Part shown: piece after piece, positions 52,413 through 64,000 of the stretch
Numbering within the stretch: the stretch's first letter is position 1
Layout: the number at the start of each line of letters is the position of its first letter
Source of the DNA: Solirubrobacterales bacterium
GTDB lineage: Bacteria; Actinomycetota; Thermoleophilia; Solirubrobacterales; 70-9
DNA length: 64,000 nucleotides
Assembly (NCBI GenBank): GCA_020438355.1
Contig: JAGQUT010000005.1
Location: forward strand, 1-64,000
Direction of reading: 5' to 3'
Made by a program: the position numbers and the translations under genes
Notes under the pieces: model-generated
What the model was told of the DNA's origin: nothing
What the model saw: only the letters and a program-made list of their open reading frames with translations
The model's database searches: none

Positions 52413-55400
52413 CTAAACTCGTAGCTCAAGGACGCCGGCGCCAACCACCTTGTGGCTCACTTCGACCCCTCGTCTCTTCTGGAGTTCGCGAATCTTGCTC
52501 TCGTGATGGCGCTCGATGTTTGCGAGCTGGCCTCGGCGCATACGCGCGATCGAATCCTGGCCCTGACGGGTTGCGTCGGCTAACTGCTCCCTGATCGTCG
52601 TGCATCTCCTCCCGAAACTAATTCGGAGACTCTCAAGCTGCGTATCAACGGCATTCTCCACAACGACCTCGCGGTCTTCGCGAATCTTCTCAACATTCCT
52701 GCCTGCCCAGGCGAGAGCATCGGCGTAACACATATCGACCCGCTCGGCTGAAAGAAGTTCTTTCCCGGAAGAACTCAAACCATCAACCACGCCGCCGAGT
52801 TTCGCCAAAGTCAGGAAGCGGTCAGACAACCCATCATCTACTTCGCCTTCCGGACTCATTACCGCCGCAACAAGTGCAATCTCGTCGCGCAGCCCACGTA
52901 TCGAGATCTCAAACAAGAAGAACAGCCACGACCCGGGCTCGGCAGATTCCAGTTCAGCTGCTCCCAATGGAATCACCAAGTGACCAGTGCAGGGGAAAGT
53001 CTCCGCGTCGCCAGCCGATGAGAGAACCATTGCCCTCACTATCGGGTGGTGTATGGAGAAGAACTCAAGGGTCCGATCGATCATTGCCCGGCGTCCGTCG
53101 AACGTAAGGATGCAGCGCTCACCCTTTTCGAGCCTGACCAACAGACTGCGGTGTTCCCGAGACAGGTTCTTGCCGGCTAGGTAAGCGTCGTTCAGGAACG
53201 ACACGAACTGCGGCTGTTCTGAGCCAATCAATTCAAACGCTGGGGCCGTGTCACCCTCCGTGTGACCGAGCTGGCGAAGCTTGACCCCGGGAAACTTGAC
53301 CCTGAGGTAGCGATCAACGAAATCCTTGAGCTCCTCAGGAGAGATGTAACGCTCTCCCTGCCTAATGTCGTTGAAGCGGTCCGTGAACACTTCGTCAACG
53401 CCGACGAACTTCTTGCTTTGCTCATCGAACTCGTCGTGCTCTTTTTGAAGGTTTATGATCGCGTTCGCGACCTGATTCGCCCGCTCAACCTGCTGGTCTT
53501 CGGTGAGTTTGCCCGTAAGAACTTGTCGCTGGATCTCCCCGATAGCGTTCCCCAAGATCGCTTCGAGGTCCCCAACCGAGCGTTCGAAGATCTGGATTCG
53601 ATCGTAAAGCCGATAGAAGATTCGATCCTCGATTGAATCTCCGATCACCAGGTTGAATATCTCGATCAGCTCAGACTTCTGCCCATATCGGTCCAAACGC
53701 CCGATTCTCTGTTCAACCCGCATCGGATTCCAAGGAAGATCGTAGTTGACCATCGTGGAGCAGAACTGAAAGTCCAGACCTTCTGCGCCGACCTCCGAAG
53801 TAAGGAGAACCTGTGGTCCAGAAGATGTTCTGAAATCGTTGATCGCCTGATATCGGTCTTCTCGCTTGATCGGTCCGTAGATTTTTCGAACGCCTACAGG
53901 CAGGCCAGAGATTTCGACAGCCTTCAGTTTCTCTTCGAGGTAATCGATGGTTCCAATGAAGAAAGAGAAGACAAGTACTTTGGCGTCTGGGTCCGCGGCG
54001 AAAACCTCTCTCAGTTGAGTGGCAAACAGATCGAACTTGGTGTCGATTCCAGCCCGCTTGACCACATCCCAGGATCGCGCTACCTCCGTTGCACTGTCTG
54101 TCTGGTTGGCCTCGCCAAGATCAGTCTCGATGTGAGTCATTCCTGAATCCTCATCGGCGCCGTAAGGACCGGTCACCACCCTTGAGAAGGGCCCGACCCC
54201 GGGTTCCGCAATACTGGGGTCAAGGTCAGTCAACTCTTCATCTTCGATGTTCGCAATGGAGGTTGCCAGAGTTCGTTCGAGCTTTGTCCCCATGGCCATG
54301 ATGCAACTAGCCACCTGTCGCTGGTAATTGGCAGTCACGAATCCAACCGGCATCCCGGTCTCCTCGTAGAGTTCTGCCGCCCATCGAGATACCGCGTCGT
54401 AGAAACGGCGTTCTTCGGGACTGAATTCGACCTCTATCTTGTAGGCGCTTCGGGTAGGAAAGTGTTCTTGAACCTCCCGCTTTTTCGTTCTGGTGAAGAT
54501 GTGCGAGAGGCTGTTGAGTCGTGAGATGACGCGTTGGGTCTCGACCGAAAACTCTCGATCGACCTCACCTTGTGCCGCTTGATCGAGCCTCCTCAGAGCT
54601 TCCCTGTAATTCACGTTCTGTGAGTATCGACAGGCTTGGGAAGTCTCTTCAACCCGCCTTAGTGCTTCAGCCGCGGCAGCAAAATCCGGAGGCCATTGGC
54701 GCCTCAGAATCCGTAACGACTCGTTGATGGGTTCGTTCGGTTCAAGGAGCCGGTAGAAACTCTCGAAGTCATTGAACTCCTCTGGCACAAGCAAGTGAAG
54801 CAACTCAAAGAAATCTCGCTCTCCGAGATTCAACGGAGTCGCTGTCAGGAACACCATCGCCTCACTAAGACTCGACATGTAGTCGCCGAGAACATTCGAC
54901 ATGGTTCCGCTGTTGCGCATGTGATGCGCTTCGTCGACTATGACCAGATCAAGGCGTGGCTTCGTTTTGTTCAGCGCCTCAATGTTTTCCGCTCTGCGCA
55001 ACAACTCGAGTGAAGCGATACCCCGGATCGGAGCCGAATCGCCCAGCCTCCCCAGCTCTTCTAACTCATCACGGAACGTTGGCCCATCGTAGATCTCGAA
55101 CTCAAGATCAAACCTCTCGCGTAGTTCGGAGCGCCACTTGGTCATCAGCGAGGAGGGGCAGACGATCAGCACCCGGTTCAGATTCATCCTGGCGTTCAGT
55201 TCGGTCAGGATTATTCCTGCCTCAATCGTTTTGCCTAGTCCGACTTCATCGGAGATCAGTAGCCGCGGGTAGGGACTTTCGATCAGTTTCAGTACGGGCT
55301 TGAACTGATAGGCGAGTAGTTCGGTCCTTGAGGCAAGAAACGAGTACAGGTTGTCGGAGATTGGGCTCGTGAGCTTTGCGAGAGTCAGGGATCCCCGGAA

Positions 55401-55634
55401 CTCTTCGCCATTTCCCAGCCTCCACTGCTTTAGCCGATCAGCAGGACTTGCGGGGCCTTCCAACTCGCTCTGAGAAATAAGGGCGTTCTCGGGGAAGGTC
55501 CGAATCTCGTCGACGGAGAAGAAGACCTCGTACTGAGTCTTCCCGTCCGGTCCGGGGTGGATTGTCGAGACCACTCCTCCCCTTTCCGGGTTCGCCTTGA
55601 GCCTGACTGGCTCTCCGGGAGAGAACCGCGTCAC
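52413..55634 (-). CDS. SNF2/RapA-type DNA-dependent ATPase (helicase)
   Basis: 1073 aa. An N-terminal RapA-like small domain (MTRFSPGEPVRLKANPERGG), then SF2 motifs: I ISDEVGLGKTIEAGI, II LVIVDEAHHMRNSG, III FLTATPLNL, V TSEVGAEGLDFQ and VI MRVEQRIGRLDRYGQ. The 450-residue C-terminal part is charged and ends in coiled coil. Relatives move along DNA and displace bound proteins. DrmD of DISARM is a distant family comparison, but no DISARM partner lies here. It starts 16 bp after the Hsp70 gene, last gene of a three-gene operon. Confidence 0.87.
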   Translation of the reverse strand: MTRFSPGEPVRLKANPERGGVVSTIHPGPDGKTQYEVFFSVDEIRTFPENALISQSELEGPASPADRLKQWRLGNGEEFRGSLTLAKLTSPISDNLYSFLASRTELLAYQFKPVLKLIESPYPRLLISDEVGLGKTIEAGIILTELNARMNLNRVLIVCPSSLMTKWRSELRERFDLEFEIYDGPTFRDELEELGRLGDSAPIRGIASLELLRRAENIEALNKTKPRLDLVIVDEAHHMRNSGTMSNVLGDYMSSLSEAMVFLTATPLNLGERDFFELLHLLVPEEFNDFESFYRLLEPNEPINESLRILRRQWPPDFAAAAEALRRVEETSQACRYSQNVNYREALRRLDQAAQGEVDREFSVETQRVISRLNSLSHIFTRTKKREVQEHFPTRSAYKIEVEFSPEERRFYDAVSRWAAELYEETGMPVGFVTANYQRQVASCIMAMGTKLERTLATSIANIEDEELTDLDPSIAEPGVGPFSRVVTGPYGADEDSGMTHIETDLGEANQTDSATEVARSWDVVKRAGIDTKFDLFATQLREVFAADPDAKVLVFSFFIGTIDYLEEKLKAVEISGLPVGVRKIYGPIKREDRYQAINDFRTSSGPQVLLTSEVGAEGLDFQFCSTMVNYDLPWNPMRVEQRIGRLDRYGQKSELIEIFNLVIGDSIEDRIFYRLYDRIQIFERSVGDLEAILGNAIGEIQRQVLTGKLTEDQQVERANQVANAIINLQKEHDEFDEQSKKFVGVDEVFTDRFNDIRQGERYISPEELKDFVDRYLRVKFPGVKLRQLGHTEGDTAPAFELIGSEQPQFVSFLNDAYLAGKNLSREHRSLLVRLEKGERCILTFDGRRAMIDRTLEFFSIHHPIVRAMVLSSAGDAETFPCTGHLVIPLGAAELESAEPGSWLFFLFEISIRGLRDEIALVAAVMSPEGEVDDGLSDRFLTLAKLGGVVDGLSSSGKELLSAERVDMCYADALAWAGRNVEKIREDREVVVENAVDTQLESLRISFGRRCTTIREQLADATRQGQDSIARMRRGQLANIERHHESKIRELQKRRGVEVSHKVVGAGVLELRV

Positions 55635-55650
55635 GGTTTGTTTCCAGTCT

Positions 55651-57651
55651 TCACCGGGGCGGCCATTTCTTGGGCGAGAGACGGATGCAGCCGTTTCTGG
55701 TTTCGGCCTTCATCGTGCCGCTCGAAGTCTTGATGGTGAACTCGAACTCTTCCACGTTCCAGCTATCCATTTCTGACATCCCATTGTCCTCACCGATGCG
55801 ACGAATTTGCTCGATGTATCCACTCTTGGATGTGCTCTGTAGGTCCGCACCCGAGGCTGAACTCGTAGTGCCGCTCAGGTCCACATAGTCACCAACCCGG
55901 AGTTTGCGCACCAGGGGCGCGTGTTGAAACCTTTCTGGTCCGACCTGGGGAACGTATTCGCCGTCCTCCTCGAAGAAGTCTTCCAGGACGTTCTCCGGGT
56001 AGTCCGCAAAATCCGAATCCACCTTCAAGTCCTGGTCCCAACCCGAAGGAGATTCGGTCCGCCTGATGACCTGACCATTGGGTCCTTCTATCCGCAGTGC
56101 GGGAAACAGGGAATCGGGTCTGACCTTGACTTTGAGGATGCTTCCCGCCTGCAGGGCAGGCACCTCCGCGAGTCCGAATGTGAACTGGTAGTCGAGCTGC
56201 TTCTCGTAGATCCCGAACGAGCATCCCGGTCGACCGATATCAGGAGCTTCGACCTCCCTCTCGATCTCCACTGAACCATTTCGGTGCTCATACTTCGAGC
56301 CCCTTTCGATGATGTCGAAGAAGCCAGCGGCCTCTTCTCGCCCCACACATATGTCCCAAGGGACGATTCGTTGCAGGGATTGTTGCCGTCCGTACTGAGC
56401 GAGGCCTTCCGACACATCGGTAATCGCCGCCTCAACGCCTTGGTCGTCATCTGGGAAGTAGCGGAGTATCCGGTCGCGTTCGGCGAGCTCCGGAAAGATG
56501 TTCATCACTGTCTGCTGAACGGACGGAACCAGCGAGGACCCACCGGTCATTACCACCCAGCCGACGTCACCCGGCTCGACTTCGCCCCTTCTCAGGGTTG
56601 CATTGATCTCATCCTCGATTTCGAACAGCTGAAGCAAGATCGAATCTTCGAATTCGCTCCGCTCCACTTCCAATCTTGCAACCGGAATGACGGCATTGAG
56701 TTTGGTGGAAAGTTCTCGTTTGCAGCTCTCGATGACCTGGCGCCGCAGAGTCTCATCCGGTACTCGCTCCTCAAGAATCGCTTTGGTTCTCGGGTCTGAC
56801 TGGAGCTTTTCGGAGAAAGCAGCATCGAGATGTTTGCCCGCGACGGCGTCCGAGCCGCCCGCCGCCAATTCGAGAACAGGGACAGGCAACCTGAACTCCG
56901 GTTTGCGCTCGTACCGGATCAGAGAGAGATCAAGGGTTCCGCCCCCGTGGTCGAATATCAGGACGTTCTCGGTCCCGTCTATGTCGAGGTCATCACCCGG
57001 AGCGGCGGCGACAGCGATCGGCTCCAAGACGAACTTCGTTCGACTGATTACGTCCGAGAACCCTTTGAAGATGGGGCGTCCATCGCTCCCGCGCGCTCTC
57101 GTGAGAGCACAGACGAGTCGTTTGCGAGCGTAACCGGAATACGCGACCGGGACCCCAACCAGAATTTGGGAGTCCGGATCGGCACCGGCCTCGAGCGCTC
57201 GCCGCAGGAGATGCTCAAGCAAGGCTGCCGCCGCGCCAACCATCTCCTCTCGGCTGTACTTGCCTCCGGATTCAATCCATTCGGTCTTGTATTCGACTTG
57301 GTCGGAGAGAGTCCGATAGTTGTACTTGCCAGTCCTTACCGGTTTGCGCACAGGGATTCTCTGTTTGAGCCGGTGGCTGTCGAGGTCGTGTTTGAAGTAC
57401 TCGAGATAGGTTCCGGTTCTGTCAGCTTTCCATCGTTGTTCGGCCTCTAGACCGAGAGTCGGCGAAGAGCCCTTGTCACGGTCGGCGAGAGGATCAAGCA
57501 CGATTGAAGCGATAACCCGGTCGTAGGGAGCGTTGCCCGTAGCCACAGAAACGGGAACAACTTCTCCGAGTGCGTTCGTGAATGTCACACACGAATTTGT
57601 GGTTCCTAGATCAAGACCGATCGTGGGTCTAAGACCAGTTGAATCGCTCAT
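55651..57651 (-). CDS. Divergent Hsp70-family ATPase
   Basis: 666 aa. Nucleotide-binding motifs: GLDLGTTNS at 12-20, an EPIAVAAA segment (210-217), IFDHGGGTLDLSLI at 232-245, and VVMTGGSSLVPSVQQ at ~370. Housekeeping DnaK has DLGTTNS and DIGGGTFD as well, so ATP binding is well supported. The ~250 residues after the ATPase domain are acidic and beta-rich, with no DnaK-like lid or EEVD end, so the client site has diverged. Its ATG overlaps the previous stop (ATGA). Confidence 0.87.
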   Translation of the reverse strand: MSDSTGLRPTIGLDLGTTNSCVTFTNALGEVVPVSVATGNAPYDRVIASIVLDPLADRDKGSSPTLGLEAEQRWKADRTGTYLEYFKHDLDSHRLKQRIPVRKPVRTGKYNYRTLSDQVEYKTEWIESGGKYSREEMVGAAAALLEHLLRRALEAGADPDSQILVGVPVAYSGYARKRLVCALTRARGSDGRPIFKGFSDVISRTKFVLEPIAVAAAPGDDLDIDGTENVLIFDHGGGTLDLSLIRYERKPEFRLPVPVLELAAGGSDAVAGKHLDAAFSEKLQSDPRTKAILEERVPDETLRRQVIESCKRELSTKLNAVIPVARLEVERSEFEDSILLQLFEIEDEINATLRRGEVEPGDVGWVVMTGGSSLVPSVQQTVMNIFPELAERDRILRYFPDDDQGVEAAITDVSEGLAQYGRQQSLQRIVPWDICVGREEAAGFFDIIERGSKYEHRNGSVEIEREVEAPDIGRPGCSFGIYEKQLDYQFTFGLAEVPALQAGSILKVKVRPDSLFPALRIEGPNGQVIRRTESPSGWDQDLKVDSDFADYPENVLEDFFEEDGEYVPQVGPERFQHAPLVRKLRVGDYVDLSGTTSSASGADLQSTSKSGYIEQIRRIGEDNGMSEMDSWNVEEFEFTIKTSSGTMKAETRNGCIRLSPKKWPPR

Positions 57652-60600
57652 TCGTTCGGTCCTCCCTCATCTGCTTCAAACGGATCCTCTTGTCCCGCGT
57701 GTCTTCCCTCTGCTGGTTCGACGATGGCCCGAGAAACGGTTTGTCCACCGAACTTGATGCCCATCGTCTTGACCACGAAAAGATCCCCTCCGTCGTCCTT
57801 CCGGATTTCGTACTCGGTCGGATCAAGGCGATCTCGGCGGTAGGTGCGGCCGAGACGGTCTTCCACTCGACGCCAGCCAGATTCAGCCAGTCGTTCCCTC
57901 AGCCGGAAGTAACTGGAAAGCAGTCTCTCAATGGCTTCGAATCGCAGTTCGAAATCGGCTGCCATCTGCCGACCGATTTTGCTTTCCTGGTCCCGCTCCT
58001 GGGTCCGGAGACTGTTCTCATTCCGAAGGTCGATCGAGAACAACGCGGAAAGCGCCCGCCAGGCGTTCTCAGTTTGCTCAGGCGAAAGCTCGCGGACCGC
58101 ACGTTCTGCGTCGCCCGAATCGGAAGCATCCAGCGCAGCCGACAGCATCGACAGTGCGGAGTCGTCACCAGGCTGGTCCGCACACCGCTGAAGTGCCGTG
58201 GCGAGTTGGTTGGATTGGGACTCATCGCCCCTCTCGTTCGCCCGTTGCCAGAACAACTCCCTCAGCTCTGGCCTGCCTCCATCCAGAAGTTCAATCATGG
58301 CGGCTCCTGAATCGCCCAGCCGAGGGTCTGGTTTCAGGCTACTTCCGGCTTCTTCGATGGCGACAAGCTCCGAATCCAGAACCGAATCGAGTAAACGAAC
58401 GAGGTCATCACGGTAATGCTCTCGCTCCGAGACCGGGGCGACCCGTTTCGAGTGCGAGCGTCGGTCCAGATCCTTCATGAGTGCCAGGAGTCGACCGTCA
58501 TCAGTCCCCGAGTCGGGGGCGAAAAGCAAAATCTGACTATCGAGCACCACGAGTCCCGGGTATCGGTCGGTAGTTGTCTCGCGCCAGGCGAGCACCGCGT
58601 CTGGAGGGTCCCCCAGGTTCGTTCCCGCGCCCTTTCCCGAGGGCGCGACCGCAGGCTGATCTGACTGACCCTCCGAGGTTTCCCCGATGGTTTGACCGAT
58701 CTCGTCGAGAAGCACTACGATCCGGTCATTCCCGTCAGCCTCTTTCCTCGCATCGGCCAACGCGTCCAGGACTATCCGCTGTCTCTCAACCAGGGACTCT
58801 GGGGCTCCGACCTTCAAGCTCTCAGACAGCTGCCGGCACTTTGATCTCGATTCAATATCTGCGATCAAGCCGGCGACGAGCAGCCAAGAGCGGGCTTCGC
58901 CTGAGGCCTGCCGAATCACCTTGCCGACTGCTTCCGCATCGGTGCGGACTGCTTCGGTGAAAACGGGCAGGAGGACGCGCTGAACCTCCTCGCTCGATCG
59001 CGACCCTTCTGCGAACTCATGCAGCAGTTCCGGAACCAGAGAACCCTGACGAAGGCCGAGAGCCTCTCTCACAAGTCCCTTGGCTTGTTCCACCCGAAGC
59101 CGATTGATGAATTCGCCAATCTCCGCCGCGACTATCCCCCTGAAACGCTGCCATCTCATCAGCGACGAAGTGGACTCGACGATCCGTCCTTTCTGCGACC
59201 TGATCCAACCGGCTGAAACGCCGACCAAGTCCGGGATAAGTGCGGATTGCTCCGCAGGCTCGAGCAGCGCGAAACCTTCACCGAAGACCTGGATCAGTTC
59301 TACCGCCTGCTCAGGAGAGGTATCTGCCTGCCTCCCAGCCCATCGTTCAAGCAATGCCTGGAGCCGGTCTCGGACGTCCTCTACGCCCGCACCTTTCACC
59401 CATCGCAGGAAGCTCTCATGATTGTCCGGTCCCTTGCCCTCAAGCCGAAGGTCCGCAGAAATTCTGGATTGTTGTGCGGGCGGCAACCCGTCGTAGACGG
59501 TGGCGAGCCGACTTCGCATCGAAGCGTCAAGTTCCTCTGAGTCAACCGAAAGCAGCCGAAGTGCTTCCGAACGCAAGTCAGCATTTTCCTCGTCCAAACA
59601 GGCGACAGCCTCTTCACGCAAGGCCCGGCGAGTCTCCCCGTCACTCTTCCTCAGGCAATTGAGCGCCAGGGCGGCGCGTTCAGCCCGAGGACCGCGACGG
59701 TTCTGCGTCGTAAGCGCCCGCTTCGCATAGCCAGCGAGTTCGGATCCCGGCAAGAAAGGGGCAAGCTCACCCATCCGCTCGAGATCCTCTCGGCGAAACA
59801 GGTTCTCTCGGGCCCAGGTTTGGAACTCCTCACCGGGGGCCATCGAAGTGGTCAGAGCGAGATCGATCATCTCATCCCGAAATGCTGCGTCGTAGGAATG
59901 AAGACCACCGGAGCCACTTGAGAGTTCGCGGATGCGTGAACCTTCTGCGACAGCGGCGGGTACCATCCGCTCAATCAGTTCTCGGCCGTGGCCAGTTTGG
60001 GCCAGTTCTGATTGCCGACGTGGCGGCATTGACATAGCCGCAAGGAGAAGCTCTCGTGGTTCCAACTCCGCAGCCGGGGCTACAGGTTGACCTCCTGCGG
60101 CTGCTGTTTCCAGCTCGCCGATCTCAAGACTCCTTTCGCGAACCGAATGAACAATTTGGCCGGCAGTCAGGCCGGCTTCATCGTCGCGGCGGGAGAAGAT
60201 CTTTGAGAGTGCGAAGAGTGCTTCAGAGCCCGGGATACCGGCGAGTACCTTCACCGCCGGTCCGATCACCTGAGGCCGCTGTTTCAGATTTGCCCTCGCA
60301 AAGTCTCCGGCGTCTTCGGATTCCATTCGACCTTCAAGAACACCTAGGGCGAGCAACCGAACCTCATCGCTGGTTCCGGTGATTCCAAGTAACCGAATCA
60401 CGGCAGATCTGGCGGCTTTGCGGCCAACCATCTGGCCGAGCTCAACCTCGATCTCCGTCGGAGCATCTTCCGCTGCCTGGTTGTAGGCGGCGAGCAGATC
60501 GTCACCCGTTTCGCCCATTCCTTGAGCTTCAGCCCACTCACGCACTTCCCGAGTCTCGGTCTGTTTGACGCCTCCAAGCGGAGCGGTACGCAGCGCCTCG

Positions 60601-60659
60601 CTCAGCGCCACAGCGAGCTCCTCCGCGTCCGGGTACTGGTCAACCGTAGGTATTCGCAC
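57648..60659 (-). CDS. Helical-repeat (HEAT-like) protein with GrpE-like C-terminus
   Basis: 1003 aa from GTG 60659 (GGGAG then ATAG before it). Residues ~40-560 are helical repeats like HEAT/ARM units (AAIRLLG-type pairs, ERAALALNCLRKSDGETRRAL, REEAVACLDEENADLRSEAL), and the middle is acidic and disordered. Residues 906-985 resemble GrpE: a helical pair (LRERLAESGWRRVED) then LDPTEYEI, G..FVVKTMGIKFGGQTVSRAIVEPA, which fits the GrpE beta-domain pattern LDPxxHEA...G..L.GRxxRxAxV. It is encoded directly before Hsp70, so it may be the scaffold and exchange factor for it. The GrpE call is an inference by eye. Confidence 0.65.
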   Translation of the reverse strand: MRIPTVDQYPDAEELAVALSEALRTAPLGGVKQTETREVREWAEAQGMGETGDDLLAAYNQAAEDAPTEIEVELGQMVGRKAARSAVIRLLGITGTSDEVRLLALGVLEGRMESEDAGDFARANLKQRPQVIGPAVKVLAGIPGSEALFALSKIFSRRDDEAGLTAGQIVHSVRERSLEIGELETAAAGGQPVAPAAELEPRELLLAAMSMPPRRQSELAQTGHGRELIERMVPAAVAEGSRIRELSSGSGGLHSYDAAFRDEMIDLALTTSMAPGEEFQTWARENLFRREDLERMGELAPFLPGSELAGYAKRALTTQNRRGPRAERAALALNCLRKSDGETRRALREEAVACLDEENADLRSEALRLLSVDSEELDASMRSRLATVYDGLPPAQQSRISADLRLEGKGPDNHESFLRWVKGAGVEDVRDRLQALLERWAGRQADTSPEQAVELIQVFGEGFALLEPAEQSALIPDLVGVSAGWIRSQKGRIVESTSSLMRWQRFRGIVAAEIGEFINRLRVEQAKGLVREALGLRQGSLVPELLHEFAEGSRSSEEVQRVLLPVFTEAVRTDAEAVGKVIRQASGEARSWLLVAGLIADIESRSKCRQLSESLKVGAPESLVERQRIVLDALADARKEADGNDRIVVLLDEIGQTIGETSEGQSDQPAVAPSGKGAGTNLGDPPDAVLAWRETTTDRYPGLVVLDSQILLFAPDSGTDDGRLLALMKDLDRRSHSKRVAPVSEREHYRDDLVRLLDSVLDSELVAIEEAGSSLKPDPRLGDSGAAMIELLDGGRPELRELFWQRANERGDESQSNQLATALQRCADQPGDDSALSMLSAALDASDSGDAERAVRELSPEQTENAWRALSALFSIDLRNENSLRTQERDQESKIGRQMAADFELRFEAIERLLSSYFRLRERLAESGWRRVEDRLGRTYRRDRLDPTEYEIRKDDGGDLFVVKTMGIKFGGQTVSRAIVEPAEGRHAGQEDPFEADEGGPNE

Positions 60660-60799
60660 CTATCTCCCTCATTGGCTCAGGCGAGACCAATGGAATCAGA
60701 AAACGCTCGAGACCGGGGGCCATCGCTCCATCGCCTAGTTGTTCAGTAGCTTGTGACGACTCCTGCGATGGCTGCGGGAGCCAGATCGAAGGGAGCCAG

Positions 60800-62578
60800 G
60801 TGATCAAGTCCGCCAACCAATATCCGGTACATAGCCTGTTGAGTCACGAGGGCAACGTGATGTACCGCATACCTCCGTACCAGCGCGAATACTCGTGGCA
60901 CAAGGCGCAATGGGAGGACCTGTTCGAGGATCTGATCGAGGCCGACGGCTCACACTTCCTCGGCACGATTATCACGCTGGACCAGACGAAGGATGCACTC
61001 GAGAGCAATATCTTGCATGTGGTTGATGGCCAGCAGCGACTGACGACTCTTACCCTCCTGCTCGCAGCCGTCTACTCGGTGTTAAGGGAAAACCTTGACG
61101 AGCTCGACGAGGACACTAGGACCGACGTCACGAATCTTGGACGACAACTCGTTCGGAAATCAGACAAACGCTCGCGAGTGACCCCCCAGATACAAGGGCA
61201 CAACCTTGATGATTACAGGGCTGTTCTTCAGGAAGCTGGGTTGCCTATCGAAGGGGAACGCAAGCCCTACTACCCGCTCCGCCGGATACGAAAGTGTTAC
61301 GGGTACTTCCGATCAGCAATTGAAAAGCTCTCTGAATCCGAGCAAATCTCTCAGCCGCAGGCTGCGCTGATGGTGCACGACGCCGCGTTGAGAGCGGTTC
61401 TCGTCAAGATCGAGGTTGCCAGCCACGCTGACGCCTTCGTGCTGTTCGAGTCGCTCAACAACCGGGGTTTGCCACTTTCTCCTGTGGACCTCATCAAGAA
61501 TCACCTCTTGGCCGAGTCTGAGAAGAAAGAGGTCATGAAGGTTGACGAGGCGTTCCGACGCTGGAACGAGATACTCGCAAGCCTAGGCGACAACTACACG
61601 GTCCAAGAGCGATTTCTTCGGCATTTCTACAACGCATTCAAACCCGATCTGCCCGAAGTCCGGGACGCACCCGTTGCCACGAAATCTCGATTGATCCGCA
61701 TCTACGAGACCGTCCTCGGACATGATCTACGTCAGGTACTCGACTCGCTGGCGGACGCCAGTGAGATCTACGGCCGAATCAACTGCGTGCTGGAACTTGA
61801 TCAACCGAGCTCACTTGATCTGGCATTTCAACGGTTGATGCATGCCCAGGGAACACCCTCGTACGTGCTGGTTCTGTGGCTGGTGTCCAACCAAAGCGAG
61901 CTCGACCTAACCGACGAACAGATTGAGTCGGCTGTAGATCGGCTGGTCAGCTTCTTTGTGCGGAGGAACTTGACCGGATACCCGCAAACTTATGCGTTGG
62001 CCAAGCTCTTCATGTCGACCATCGATGCTGTTGGCGACGCCCACGGTGACGAGATGCTGACAGTCATCAGTGAGCGACTCCGTGCCAACTCCGCAAGTGA
62101 CGATGATTTCCGCGATCGGCTGATGGGGCCCATTTACGACGAGAACTCCGATGTCGCCAGGTTCATCCTCTCGACGCTTGCTGAGGACCAGATGACCAAG
62201 GAGACCAAAGTGGACCTTTGGCGGCAAGAGAACAATCGTTACGTCTGGACCATCGAGCATATTCTTCCGCAGGGGGAGAACTTGCCGTCCGCATGGCAGG
62301 AGATGTTGGGTGGACCAGAGGTTGCGGCCGGGATTCAGGAGGAGCACCGGCATAGGCTCGGGAACCTCACCATAACGGCCTACAACAGCAACCTGGGAAA
62401 CAAATCCTTCGTCGAGAAACGAGATCGTCAGGATCCTGGGGGCAGGCCTATCGGCTATCGAAACGGACTCTCGCTGAATCAGGACTTGGCCGTGAAAGAT
62501 TCCTGGACGGCACAAGACATAGAGGAGCGAACTGAAGGCCTTACTGCGAGGGTCTTGGAACGCTTTCCGCTCGCGTAG
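60800..62578 (+). CDS. GmrSD-type protein (DUF262 + DUF1524)
   Basis: 592 aa from GTG 60800 (GGGAG four bases upstream). DUF262 part: YRIPPYQREYSWHKAQWEDL and VVDGQQRLTTLTLLL, a ParB/GmrS-like nucleotide-binding fold. C-terminal DUF1524 part: WTIEHILPQGENL, HRLGNLTITAYNSNLGNKSF, the His-Asn/HNH-like nuclease. Fused GmrS-GmrD proteins act as type IV restriction enzymes on modified phage DNA (established for GmrSD). Divergent from the Hsp70 operon and 5' of the DUF499 gene. Confidence 0.88.
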   Translation: MIKSANQYPVHSLLSHEGNVMYRIPPYQREYSWHKAQWEDLFEDLIEADGSHFLGTIITLDQTKDALESNILHVVDGQQRLTTLTLLLAAVYSVLRENLDELDEDTRTDVTNLGRQLVRKSDKRSRVTPQIQGHNLDDYRAVLQEAGLPIEGERKPYYPLRRIRKCYGYFRSAIEKLSESEQISQPQAALMVHDAALRAVLVKIEVASHADAFVLFESLNNRGLPLSPVDLIKNHLLAESEKKEVMKVDEAFRRWNEILASLGDNYTVQERFLRHFYNAFKPDLPEVRDAPVATKSRLIRIYETVLGHDLRQVLDSLADASEIYGRINCVLELDQPSSLDLAFQRLMHAQGTPSYVLVLWLVSNQSELDLTDEQIESAVDRLVSFFVRRNLTGYPQTYALAKLFMSTIDAVGDAHGDEMLTVISERLRANSASDDDFRDRLMGPIYDENSDVARFILSTLAEDQMTKETKVDLWRQENNRYVWTIEHILPQGENLPSAWQEMLGGPEVAAGIQEEHRHRLGNLTITAYNSNLGNKSFVEKRDRQDPGGRPIGYRNGLSLNQDLAVKDSWTAQDIEERTEGLTARVLERFPLA

Positions 62579-62778: not shown

Positions 62779-64000
62779 ATTTCCAAACTAGAGCCAATTA
62801 CCGATACCTGTATCCCGCGAGACGACGTTCGGGCAGGCAACCTGACAGACGCTCATTTCGCGGCCCAGCTGGACCGCATTGTCCGGAACCCGGACCAGTA
62901 CCCCGTCTATGGTGACGCCGAGCAGTTCTTCGAGCTGACCTACCCCACCAGTGGACTGAAGGCGCTTCTAGCACGGGTCTTCGGTCGACTTTCGGATGCA
63001 AAAGTCGAGGGTGCCGAACATGGTGTAGTTCGTTCAGAAACAAGCTTTGGCGGTGGAAAGACCCACGGTCTGATCGCCACTTACCACTTGGCCAAAGGAG
63101 CGCGGCCATCGAACATCGCAGAGTTCATCGACCCCGAACTGATCCCCGATGGGTGCCAGATTGCCGCGGTAGTAGGCGACACGCTCGACCCCTCAGCTGG
63201 ACTCACCACTAGGGGCCATCACACCTACACAATTTGGGGCGAGATTGCGGCACAGCTGGGCCCCGCAGCCTTCAAGGCGATTCAGAACAACGAAACGGAC
63301 CGCACCGCGCCCGGTGACGACGTTTGGAAACAGGTGATCGAGGACAAGCCCACGATCATCGTTATCGACGAGCTGGCCGCCTACATGCGGACACTCTCCT
63401 CGTCGGGTAGCGCCGACATCAGGAGGATGGCTGAGGCGATGCCTGCCTTTCTGAAGCGTCTCTACGAAGCGGCAGCCGGCAATCCGAACCTGGTGGTGGT
63501 GATCACCTTCGCCAGCACTCGAAATGCCTTCGGCAAGGAGACCACCGACCTTGAGCAGGCCATGAAGGAAGCCGAGGGTTCGATTCGGGCAGACGAGGTT
63601 CAGAGCGTGACCGAAAGGGGCGGCTCGATTCTGAAACCCGCCGAAGACGATGAGATCGGAGAGATCCTCAAGCGCCGTCTCTTCAAAGAAATCGACCAGG
63701 ACGCCGCTCGCTCGGCTGGAGATGCGTACCGGGACCTTTACCAGGAGCTCAAGGACCGAAATGAGACGCTCTCGGGCGGCGCAGATCGGCCCGTTACCTA
63801 CGGCGAACAGGTCGCCCGCACCTACCCCTTCCACCCCGAGCTGATTCGCGTCCTCGACAAACGCCTGGGTGCGATACCCAACTTCCAGCGGGCCCGAGGT
63901 TCACTAAGGCTGCTCGCGGAAACGGTCGCGAATATCTACTCGGGAAGCGGAGAGAACCCCGAGATCATCAACCTCGCCGACATCGACCTTTCAAACACCG
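62779..64000 (+). CDS. DUF499-family AAA-like ATPase, 3' end cut by window
   Basis: At least 407 codons. Walker A is SFGGGKTHGLIATYH and Walker B is TIIVIDELAAYM; an early GNLTDAHFAAQLDRIV and FFELTYPTSGLKALL match the N-terminus of DUF499 proteins. No ATG, GTG or TTG lies in frame before the Walker A site. The frame opens after a stop at 62719 and family similarity starts near KLEPITDTCIP, so ATT 62779, nine bases after GGAGG, is proposed as start. DUF499 ATPases are often next to DUF1156 methylases in anti-phage modules, which would lie beyond the window. Confidence 0.75.
   Translation, partial: MSKLEPITDTCIPRDDVRAGNLTDAHFAAQLDRIVRNPDQYPVYGDAEQFFELTYPTSGLKALLARVFGRLSDAKVEGAEHGVVRSETSFGGGKTHGLIATYHLAKGARPSNIAEFIDPELIPDGCQIAAVVGDTLDPSAGLTTRGHHTYTIWGEIAAQLGPAAFKAIQNNETDRTAPGDDVWKQVIEDKPTIIVIDELAAYMRTLSSSGSADIRRMAEAMPAFLKRLYEAAAGNPNLVVVITFASTRNAFGKETTDLEQAMKEAEGSIRADEVQSVTERGGSILKPAEDDEIGEILKRRLFKEIDQDAARSAGDAYRDLYQELKDRNETLSGGADRPVTYGEQVARTYPFHPELIRVLDKRLGAIPNFQRARGSLRLLAETVANIYSGSGENPEIINLADIDLSNT

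What the first reader, a model, noticed from the sequence alone, without database searches (positions are those of the whole stretch)
52413..60659. Hsp70 + GrpE-like helical-repeat protein + SNF2 ATPase operon in a defence-type island
Three coupled minus-strand genes (overlap ATGA, then a 16-bp gap) encode a 1003-aa helical-repeat protein, an intact but divergent Hsp70 and a 1073-aa RapA-type translocase. A dedicated chaperone machine with a DNA translocase is not part of any named anti-phage system I know. Its neighbours (GmrSD, DUF499, DUF488 pair) are defence-type genes. A testable idea: Hsp70 with its exchange factor loads, unfolds or resets a client such as phage protein on DNA, and the SNF2 protein strips it. 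The operon could instead be a DNA-repair or proteostasis unit.
Basis: partly seen in the sequence, partly recalled or inferred. Interest (0 to 1): 0.85.

Follow-up and report, generated by a model that had tools for sequence, protein, structure and literature searches.

The report
Hsp70-plus-SNF2 operon in defence island
Three coupled genes in a mobile, defence-gene-rich stretch of an uncultured bacterium's genome encode a DNA motor, an Hsp70-type ATPase and a large orphan helical protein; this exact trio was found nowhere else, but relatives of the motor across many phyla are mostly paired with an Hsp70-fold or Hsp90-fold ATPase, which points to an undescribed kind of chaperone-plus-DNA-motor defence unit.

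Summary
In detail: three coupled minus-strand genes encode a 1003-aa orphan protein, a divergent Hsp70 with intact ATPase motifs, and a 1073-aa SNF2 translocase. They sit in a low-GC island; a same-genus genome lacks about 38 kb here. Neighbours are GmrSD and a DUF499/DUF1156-methylase/PLD-SNF2 cluster. The exact trio is not conserved: no relative of the orphan and no orthologue of the Hsp70 turned up in the genomes, plasmids, phages or viral contigs searched. 'GrpE-like' is not supported. The main new result comes from the SNF2. In 89 loci fetched by SNF2 sequence alone, only two neighbour families recur at a fixed place: an Hsp70/actin-fold (ASKHA) ATPase in 45 and a Sacsin/Hsp90-like ATPase (PADLOC TmtA) in 28, mostly directly adjacent. 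SNF2 plus a chaperone-fold ATPase is thus a recurrent two-gene module. The window carries a third version, with a true Hsp70 and an extra helical protein, in a branch whose nearest members mostly lack such a partner. Best reading: a defence-type SNF2 DNA motor controlled by an Hsp70 switch. Anti-phage activity is inferred, not shown.

The parts
57648..60659 (-). first gene of the operon: 1003-aa orphan protein, probably largely helical; possible scaffold, adaptor or sensor
   Evidence: open frame; no Pfam/PADLOC/NCBIfam match; no relative in 296 phylum, 18 genus or 12 SNF2-clade genomes, plasmids or phages; AF2 of the last 234 aa: helices then three strands, pLDDT 47
55651..57651 (-). second gene: 666-aa divergent Hsp70 (ASKHA ATPase), nucleotide-binding motifs intact, C-terminal half poorly conserved
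   Evidence: PF00012 E 1.5e-14; alignment with own DnaK; Foldseek of a low-confidence model gives DnaK/Hsc70 first, E 9e-16; ATGA overlap with the upstream gene
52413..55634 (-). third gene: 1073-aa SNF2 translocase of the SEVGxEGxDxQFC clade (RapA/DrmD-like), helicase motifs intact (DEVGLGKT, DEAH, QRIGR)
   Evidence: PADLOC PDLC02623 E 5.6e-153; below the NCBIfam DrmD cut-off; clade and tree
60660..60799 (.). 140-bp divergent intergenic region between the operon and the GmrSD gene, likely place of the operon's promoter
   Evidence: sequence read; function inferred
60800..62578 (+). neighbour, not part of the operon: GmrSD-type type IV restriction protein
   Evidence: PF03235 E 4.9e-37, PF07510 E 1.5e-18
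63088..64000 (+). neighbour: start of a cluster that runs past the window end (to about 72548 of the contig): DUF499 ATPase, DUF7680, DUF1156 methylase, PLD-SNF2 helicase
   Evidence: on L037 (contig 60001-80000)

Best explanation
The three genes form one horizontally acquired, defence-type unit built around a DNA translocase (SNF2) and a chaperone-fold ATPase. Shown: operon layout; placement in a variable island with defence genes; and, for the SNF2 clade at large, recurrent one-to-one coupling with an Hsp70/actin-fold or an Hsp90/Sacsin-fold ATPase. Inferred: the Hsp70, with the large helical protein as scaffold or client adaptor, acts as an ATP-driven switch that holds the SNF2 motor in check or loads it, and releases it when it meets a foreign cue such as a phage protein or protein-DNA complex; the motor then moves along invading DNA and strips or blocks replication or transcription complexes. 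No nuclease domain was recognised in the three proteins, so the block would be non-nucleolytic or would recruit another nuclease. In this view the window is a variant of a two-gene SNF2-plus-chaperone-ATPase module in which a bona fide Hsp70 takes the partner's place.
For: Coupled frames with a ribosome-binding site at the first junction. Island: GC 0.55-0.61 from about 50 kb against about 0.65 in the core; same-genus genome G405 joins contig positions 49.1 kb and 87.3 kb through about 3.5 kb. Defence neighbours. SNF2 clade: a scan that required only an SNF2 motif returned 80 genome loci from many phyla. Clustering of 986 neighbouring ORFs in 89 loci found only two families at a fixed position: ASKHA ATPase in 45 loci (37 directly downstream, 6 directly upstream) and Sacsin/GHKL in 28 (24 directly downstream), usually overlapping or within about 60 bp. 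The ASKHA partner is Hsp70-related: profile comparison with DnaK 98.2%, E 5e-14, and with the window Hsp70 94.2%, E 1e-7; its ATP-site motifs are conserved. In six cyanobacteria the order is ASKHA then SNF2, as in the window. The Sacsin partners match PADLOC TmtA. The Aminobacter pair lies beside a HamA gene and an McrBC-type gene on a conjugative plasmid.
Against: The nearest SNF2 relatives (L122-L132; two of them cut by contig ends) show no such ATPase beside them, so the window's Hsp70 was probably acquired separately and the partner rule of the wider clade may not apply to it. The window Hsp70 is only a superfamily relative of the clade's ASKHA partners (direct phmmer E 0.013 to 0.21 in a five-sequence search). 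The trio is a single occurrence in everything searched. No experiment exists. Genes in islands can be adjacent without acting together.
Confidence: 0.5

Rival explanations
1. The SNF2 is a self-sufficient defence or RapA-like protein, and the Hsp70 and the 1003-aa protein are a separate cassette that happens to lie upstream of it in the island.
For: The closest SNF2 relatives (11 loci, L122-L132) have no conserved partner; no second case of the trio was found.
Against: 16-bp spacing on one strand; 73 of 89 relatives of the SNF2 carry a chaperone-fold ATPase, most of them directly adjacent, which makes an unrelated Hsp70 neighbour an unlikely coincidence.
Confidence: 0.25
2. A proteostasis or repair unit: the SNF2 recycles stalled RNA polymerase or clears DNA-bound protein, as RapA does, and a dedicated Hsp70 refolds or removes the released protein.
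For: The SNF2 resembles RapA (PDB matches about 1e-40); the Hsp70 motifs are intact.
Against: Absent from the other 17 genomes of the genus by the 1003-aa query and from the other 398 class genomes by the Hsp70 query; island setting with defence genes; no DnaJ or GrpE in the operon, the genome's own copies lie on other contigs.
Confidence: 0.15
3. A divergent relative of a CoCoNuT type III or similar Hsp70-plus-HEAT conflict system in which the SNF2 has replaced McrBC, with RNA rather than DNA as target.
For: CoCoNuT type III combines Hsp70-like ATPases with HEAT-like helical repeats (PMC11090510).
Against: No McrB GTPase, McrC or HEPN domain was identified among the neighbouring genes scanned; the ATP-site motifs of the window Hsp70 are intact, whereas those of CnuD are described as partly degenerate.
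Confidence: 0.1

Closest known systems
DISARM class 1 (DrmD SNF2)
   Same: The SNF2 is a full-length match to PADLOC model PDLC02623, labelled DrmD
   Different: Below the NCBIfam DrmD cut-off (358 against 610 bits); no DrmA, DrmB, DrmC or methylase in the operon; the same PADLOC model scores 978 bits on the Shinella SNF2 that has an ASKHA partner
TmtA (Sacsin/GHKL ATPase; Tiamat, name from own knowledge)
   Same: Relatives of the window SNF2 in 28 loci are partnered with Sacsin/GHKL ATPases, and the two tested match TmtA models
   Different: The window has an Hsp70, not a GHKL protein; Tiamat is known to me as a single-gene system
CoCoNuT type III (CnuD Hsp70 with HEAT-like repeats, PMC11090510)
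   Same: Hsp70-type ATPase combined with helical repeats in a defence setting
   Different: No McrB/McrC partner here; a SNF2 motor instead; intact Hsp70 ATP-site motifs
GAP1-N2 GTPase conflict systems with HSP70 and GrpE (PMC7159879)
   Same: Hsp70 inside a conflict-type operon
   Different: No GTPase, tubulin or GrpE found here; a DNA translocase instead
RapA (RNA polymerase recycling SNF2)
   Same: SNF2 core similarity
   Different: RapA is a single housekeeping gene; this one is an island gene with coupled partners

Membership tests
DISARM | SNF2 DrmD at the curated family cut-off | tested here: not met
   358 bits against a cut-off of 610, although a PADLOC DrmD model matches
DISARM | DrmA/DrmB/DrmC and methylase genes in the same operon | tested here: not met
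   the operon has only the three genes; the genome's only MZB/DUF1998 match is on another contig, C82
SNF2 plus chaperone-fold ATPase module (defined here) | SNF2 of the SEVGxEGxDxQFC clade with intact motifs | tested here: met
SNF2 plus chaperone-fold ATPase module (defined here) | ASKHA or GHKL ATPase gene directly adjacent on the same strand | tested here: met
   Hsp70 gene 16 bp upstream
SNF2 plus chaperone-fold ATPase module (defined here) | partner orthologous to the ASKHA or Sacsin partner of the clade | tested here: not met
   superfamily similarity only; the window SNF2 lies outside the ASKHA-partnered group, which has 99 support
DnaK/DnaJ/GrpE machine | Hsp70 nucleotide-binding motifs | tested here: met
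DnaK/DnaJ/GrpE machine | GrpE-type exchange factor in the operon | tested here: not met
   no Pfam GrpE hit; -0.8 bits, 327 of 1000 shuffles as good; a structural resemblance without sequence similarity is not excluded
DnaK/DnaJ/GrpE machine | dedicated J-domain protein | tested here: not met
   the genome's only DnaJ match is on contig C56
CoCoNuT type III | McrB-type GTPase and CnuC next to the Hsp70 | tested here: not met
   no such Pfam match in the neighbouring genes scanned
anti-phage system | protects against phage | not testable with these tools
   needs a plaque assay

The most novel reading that the evidence does not exclude
Prokaryotes carry a widespread, undescribed class of immune machines made of a SNF2 DNA motor and a chaperone-fold ATPase (Hsp70-type or Hsp90-type), in which a protein-conformation switch gates a DNA translocase; the window operon is a three-part version with a true Hsp70 and a new helical adaptor.
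Probability: 0.35. Interest if true: 0.85.

Novelty: new variant of a known kind. Interest (0 to 1): 0.62.

Why it matters
If right, it links two well-known machine types, Hsp70/Hsp90-fold ATPases and SNF2 remodellers, in one prokaryotic defence principle, with dozens of ready-made two-gene test cases in genera such as Pseudomonas, Stutzerimonas, Vibrio, Sphingobium, Microvirga and Roseomonas. It also warns that these SNF2 genes are picked up by a DISARM DrmD model although no DISARM operon was seen around those examined.

Tried and rejected
Hsp70 as bait in viral contigs and genome contigs found no relative; the 1003-aa protein in viral contigs, plasmids and phages found none. The Hsp70 over 296 phylum genomes gave only weak generic Hsp70 matches, and at a strict threshold none in 399 class genomes (own copy apart) and 261 genomes of the phylum of a Dehalococcoidia SNF2 host. 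GrpE test: negative (searches contain failed or badly set-up runs of the same test). AlphaFold without a deep alignment gave poor models (pLDDT 47 and 44); the COMMD-like top hits for the C-terminal model (E 0.05) are not trusted. The slower maximum-likelihood tree did not finish, so a FastTree tree was used. Haloarchaeal plasmid Hsp70 loci carry vWA, AAA ATPase, tubulin-like or GrpE genes, not SNF2. Literature searches found no description of the SNF2 plus Hsp70-fold pair in the held library, which misses most subscription papers.

Full report
Observation. The three frames are as reported. The 1003-aa gene and the Hsp70 gene overlap in ATGA with GGAGG upstream; Hsp70 and SNF2 are 16 bp apart. 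A 140-bp gap separates the operon from a divergent GmrSD gene, and the next same-strand gene downstream starts about 260 bp away. The Hsp70 matches PF00012 at E 1.5e-14 and aligns to the genome's own DnaK with intact phosphate-1 (GLDLGTTNS), phosphate-2 (DHGGGTLD), EP and adenosine (GGSS) motifs, but its C-terminal half is poorly conserved. The SNF2 has all helicase motifs. The 1003-aa protein has no family match.

Island. GC falls from about 0.65 to 0.55-0.61 near 50 kb. In the same-genus genome G405, sequence matching contig positions up to 49.1 kb is followed after about 3.5 kb by sequence matching 87.3 kb. So roughly 38 kb that include the trio are absent or replaced there; the exact ends were not mapped. 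The island holds GmrSD and, from 63088, a DUF499 / DUF7680 / DUF1156 methylase / PLD-SNF2 helicase cluster with matches to HmaC, HmaB, PbeA and PLD_Helicase models.

Conservation of the trio. The 1003-aa protein rang only in its own genome among 296 phylum and 18 genus genomes, in none of 12 genomes of SNF2 relatives, and not in plasmids or phages. The Hsp70 gave only weak generic matches elsewhere and none at a strict threshold in the other 398 class genomes or in 261 genomes of another phylum. One scan each of the viral and genome collections with the Hsp70 found nothing; those scans see only close relatives.

The SNF2 leads further. Its four best plasmid relatives (about 32% identity) are each followed by a gene for a chaperone-fold ATPase: Sacsin-domain proteins in Ensifer and Methanomethylovorans and Hsp70/actin-fold proteins in Shinella and Aminobacter (read from the sequence). 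A scan of one genome per species with an SNF2-only motif gave 80 loci. When all 986 neighbour ORFs of 89 loci are clustered without preconception, only these two families recur at a fixed place: ASKHA in 45 loci and Sacsin/GHKL in 28. Gaps are mostly between -52 and +59 bp. The ASKHA family is related to DnaK by profile comparison (98.2%) and keeps GxDFGT, DxGxxTxD and GGG motifs. The two Sacsin partners tested match PADLOC TmtA. One nearest large neighbour per locus, scanned against PADLOC at E 1e-20, gave matches to GajB, DrmMI, type IIG restriction and DRT models among others; the share of defence genes and a control were not measured.

Tree. In a FastTree tree of 93 SNF2s the ASKHA-partnered rows form one group (99 support) with a single exception, a row at a contig edge; Sacsin partners occur in several groups. 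The window SNF2 pairs with one from Solirubrobacter (45% identity, support 100) inside a group of mostly partnerless SNF2s that also holds one Sacsin case (L133); the neighbouring pair holds L161, where an Hsp70-like gene lies 1.6 kb downstream. So the Hsp70 of the window is most simply a separate recruitment of an Hsp70-fold partner. Support values are local and the tree is unrooted.

Mechanism. What is shown is the coupling, the motifs and the setting. That the Hsp70 gates or loads the SNF2, that the helical protein is a scaffold or sensor, and that the outcome is phage defence are inferences. No GrpE or J-domain gene accompanies the Hsp70, which fits a regulatory switch at least as well as a general folding machine.

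Known systems. By the features tested it is not DISARM, not CoCoNuT type III and not a GAP1-N2/Hsp70/GrpE system. It works most like a SNF2-centred restriction-type system with a chaperone-fold regulatory ATPase. No description of that pairing was found in the papers held.

Noticed in passing
window 63088-64000 and L037 3088-12548 (contig C89 63088-72548): Four-gene cluster DUF499 ATPase, DUF7680, DUF1156 methylase, PLD-SNF2 helicase with matches to HmaB/HmaC, PbeA and PLD_Helicase models: a second SNF2 system near the trio.
   Followed up: partly
L039 8953-12099, L041 8995-12180: PADLOC DrmD model PDLC02623 scores 978 and 790 bits on SNF2s that belong to ASKHA-partnered pairs, so this model may label a different two-gene system as DISARM.
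   Followed up: partly
L175, L180, L186, L190: Marine euryarchaeal members of the SNF2 clade have their own fixed upstream pair (about 147-171 aa at -1 and about 350-390 aa at -2) instead of a chaperone-fold ATPase.
   Followed up: no
L170, L177, L179: Cyanobacterial ASKHA-SNF2 pairs lie beside a gene of about 1050 aa and a 426-464 aa gene on the opposite strand; DrmMI/type IIG methylase models match three of the neighbours scanned, possibly these.
   Followed up: no
   Followed up: partly
L004 (Haloplanus plasmid): Hsp70 with GrpE, vWA, AAA ATPase and tubulin-like genes, resembling Hsp70/tubulin conflict systems in the literature.
   Followed up: no
window 57651-58352 (-): A low-confidence model of the C-terminal part of the 1003-aa protein gives COMMD-like proteins as top structure hits (E 0.05); not trusted.
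   Followed up: partly
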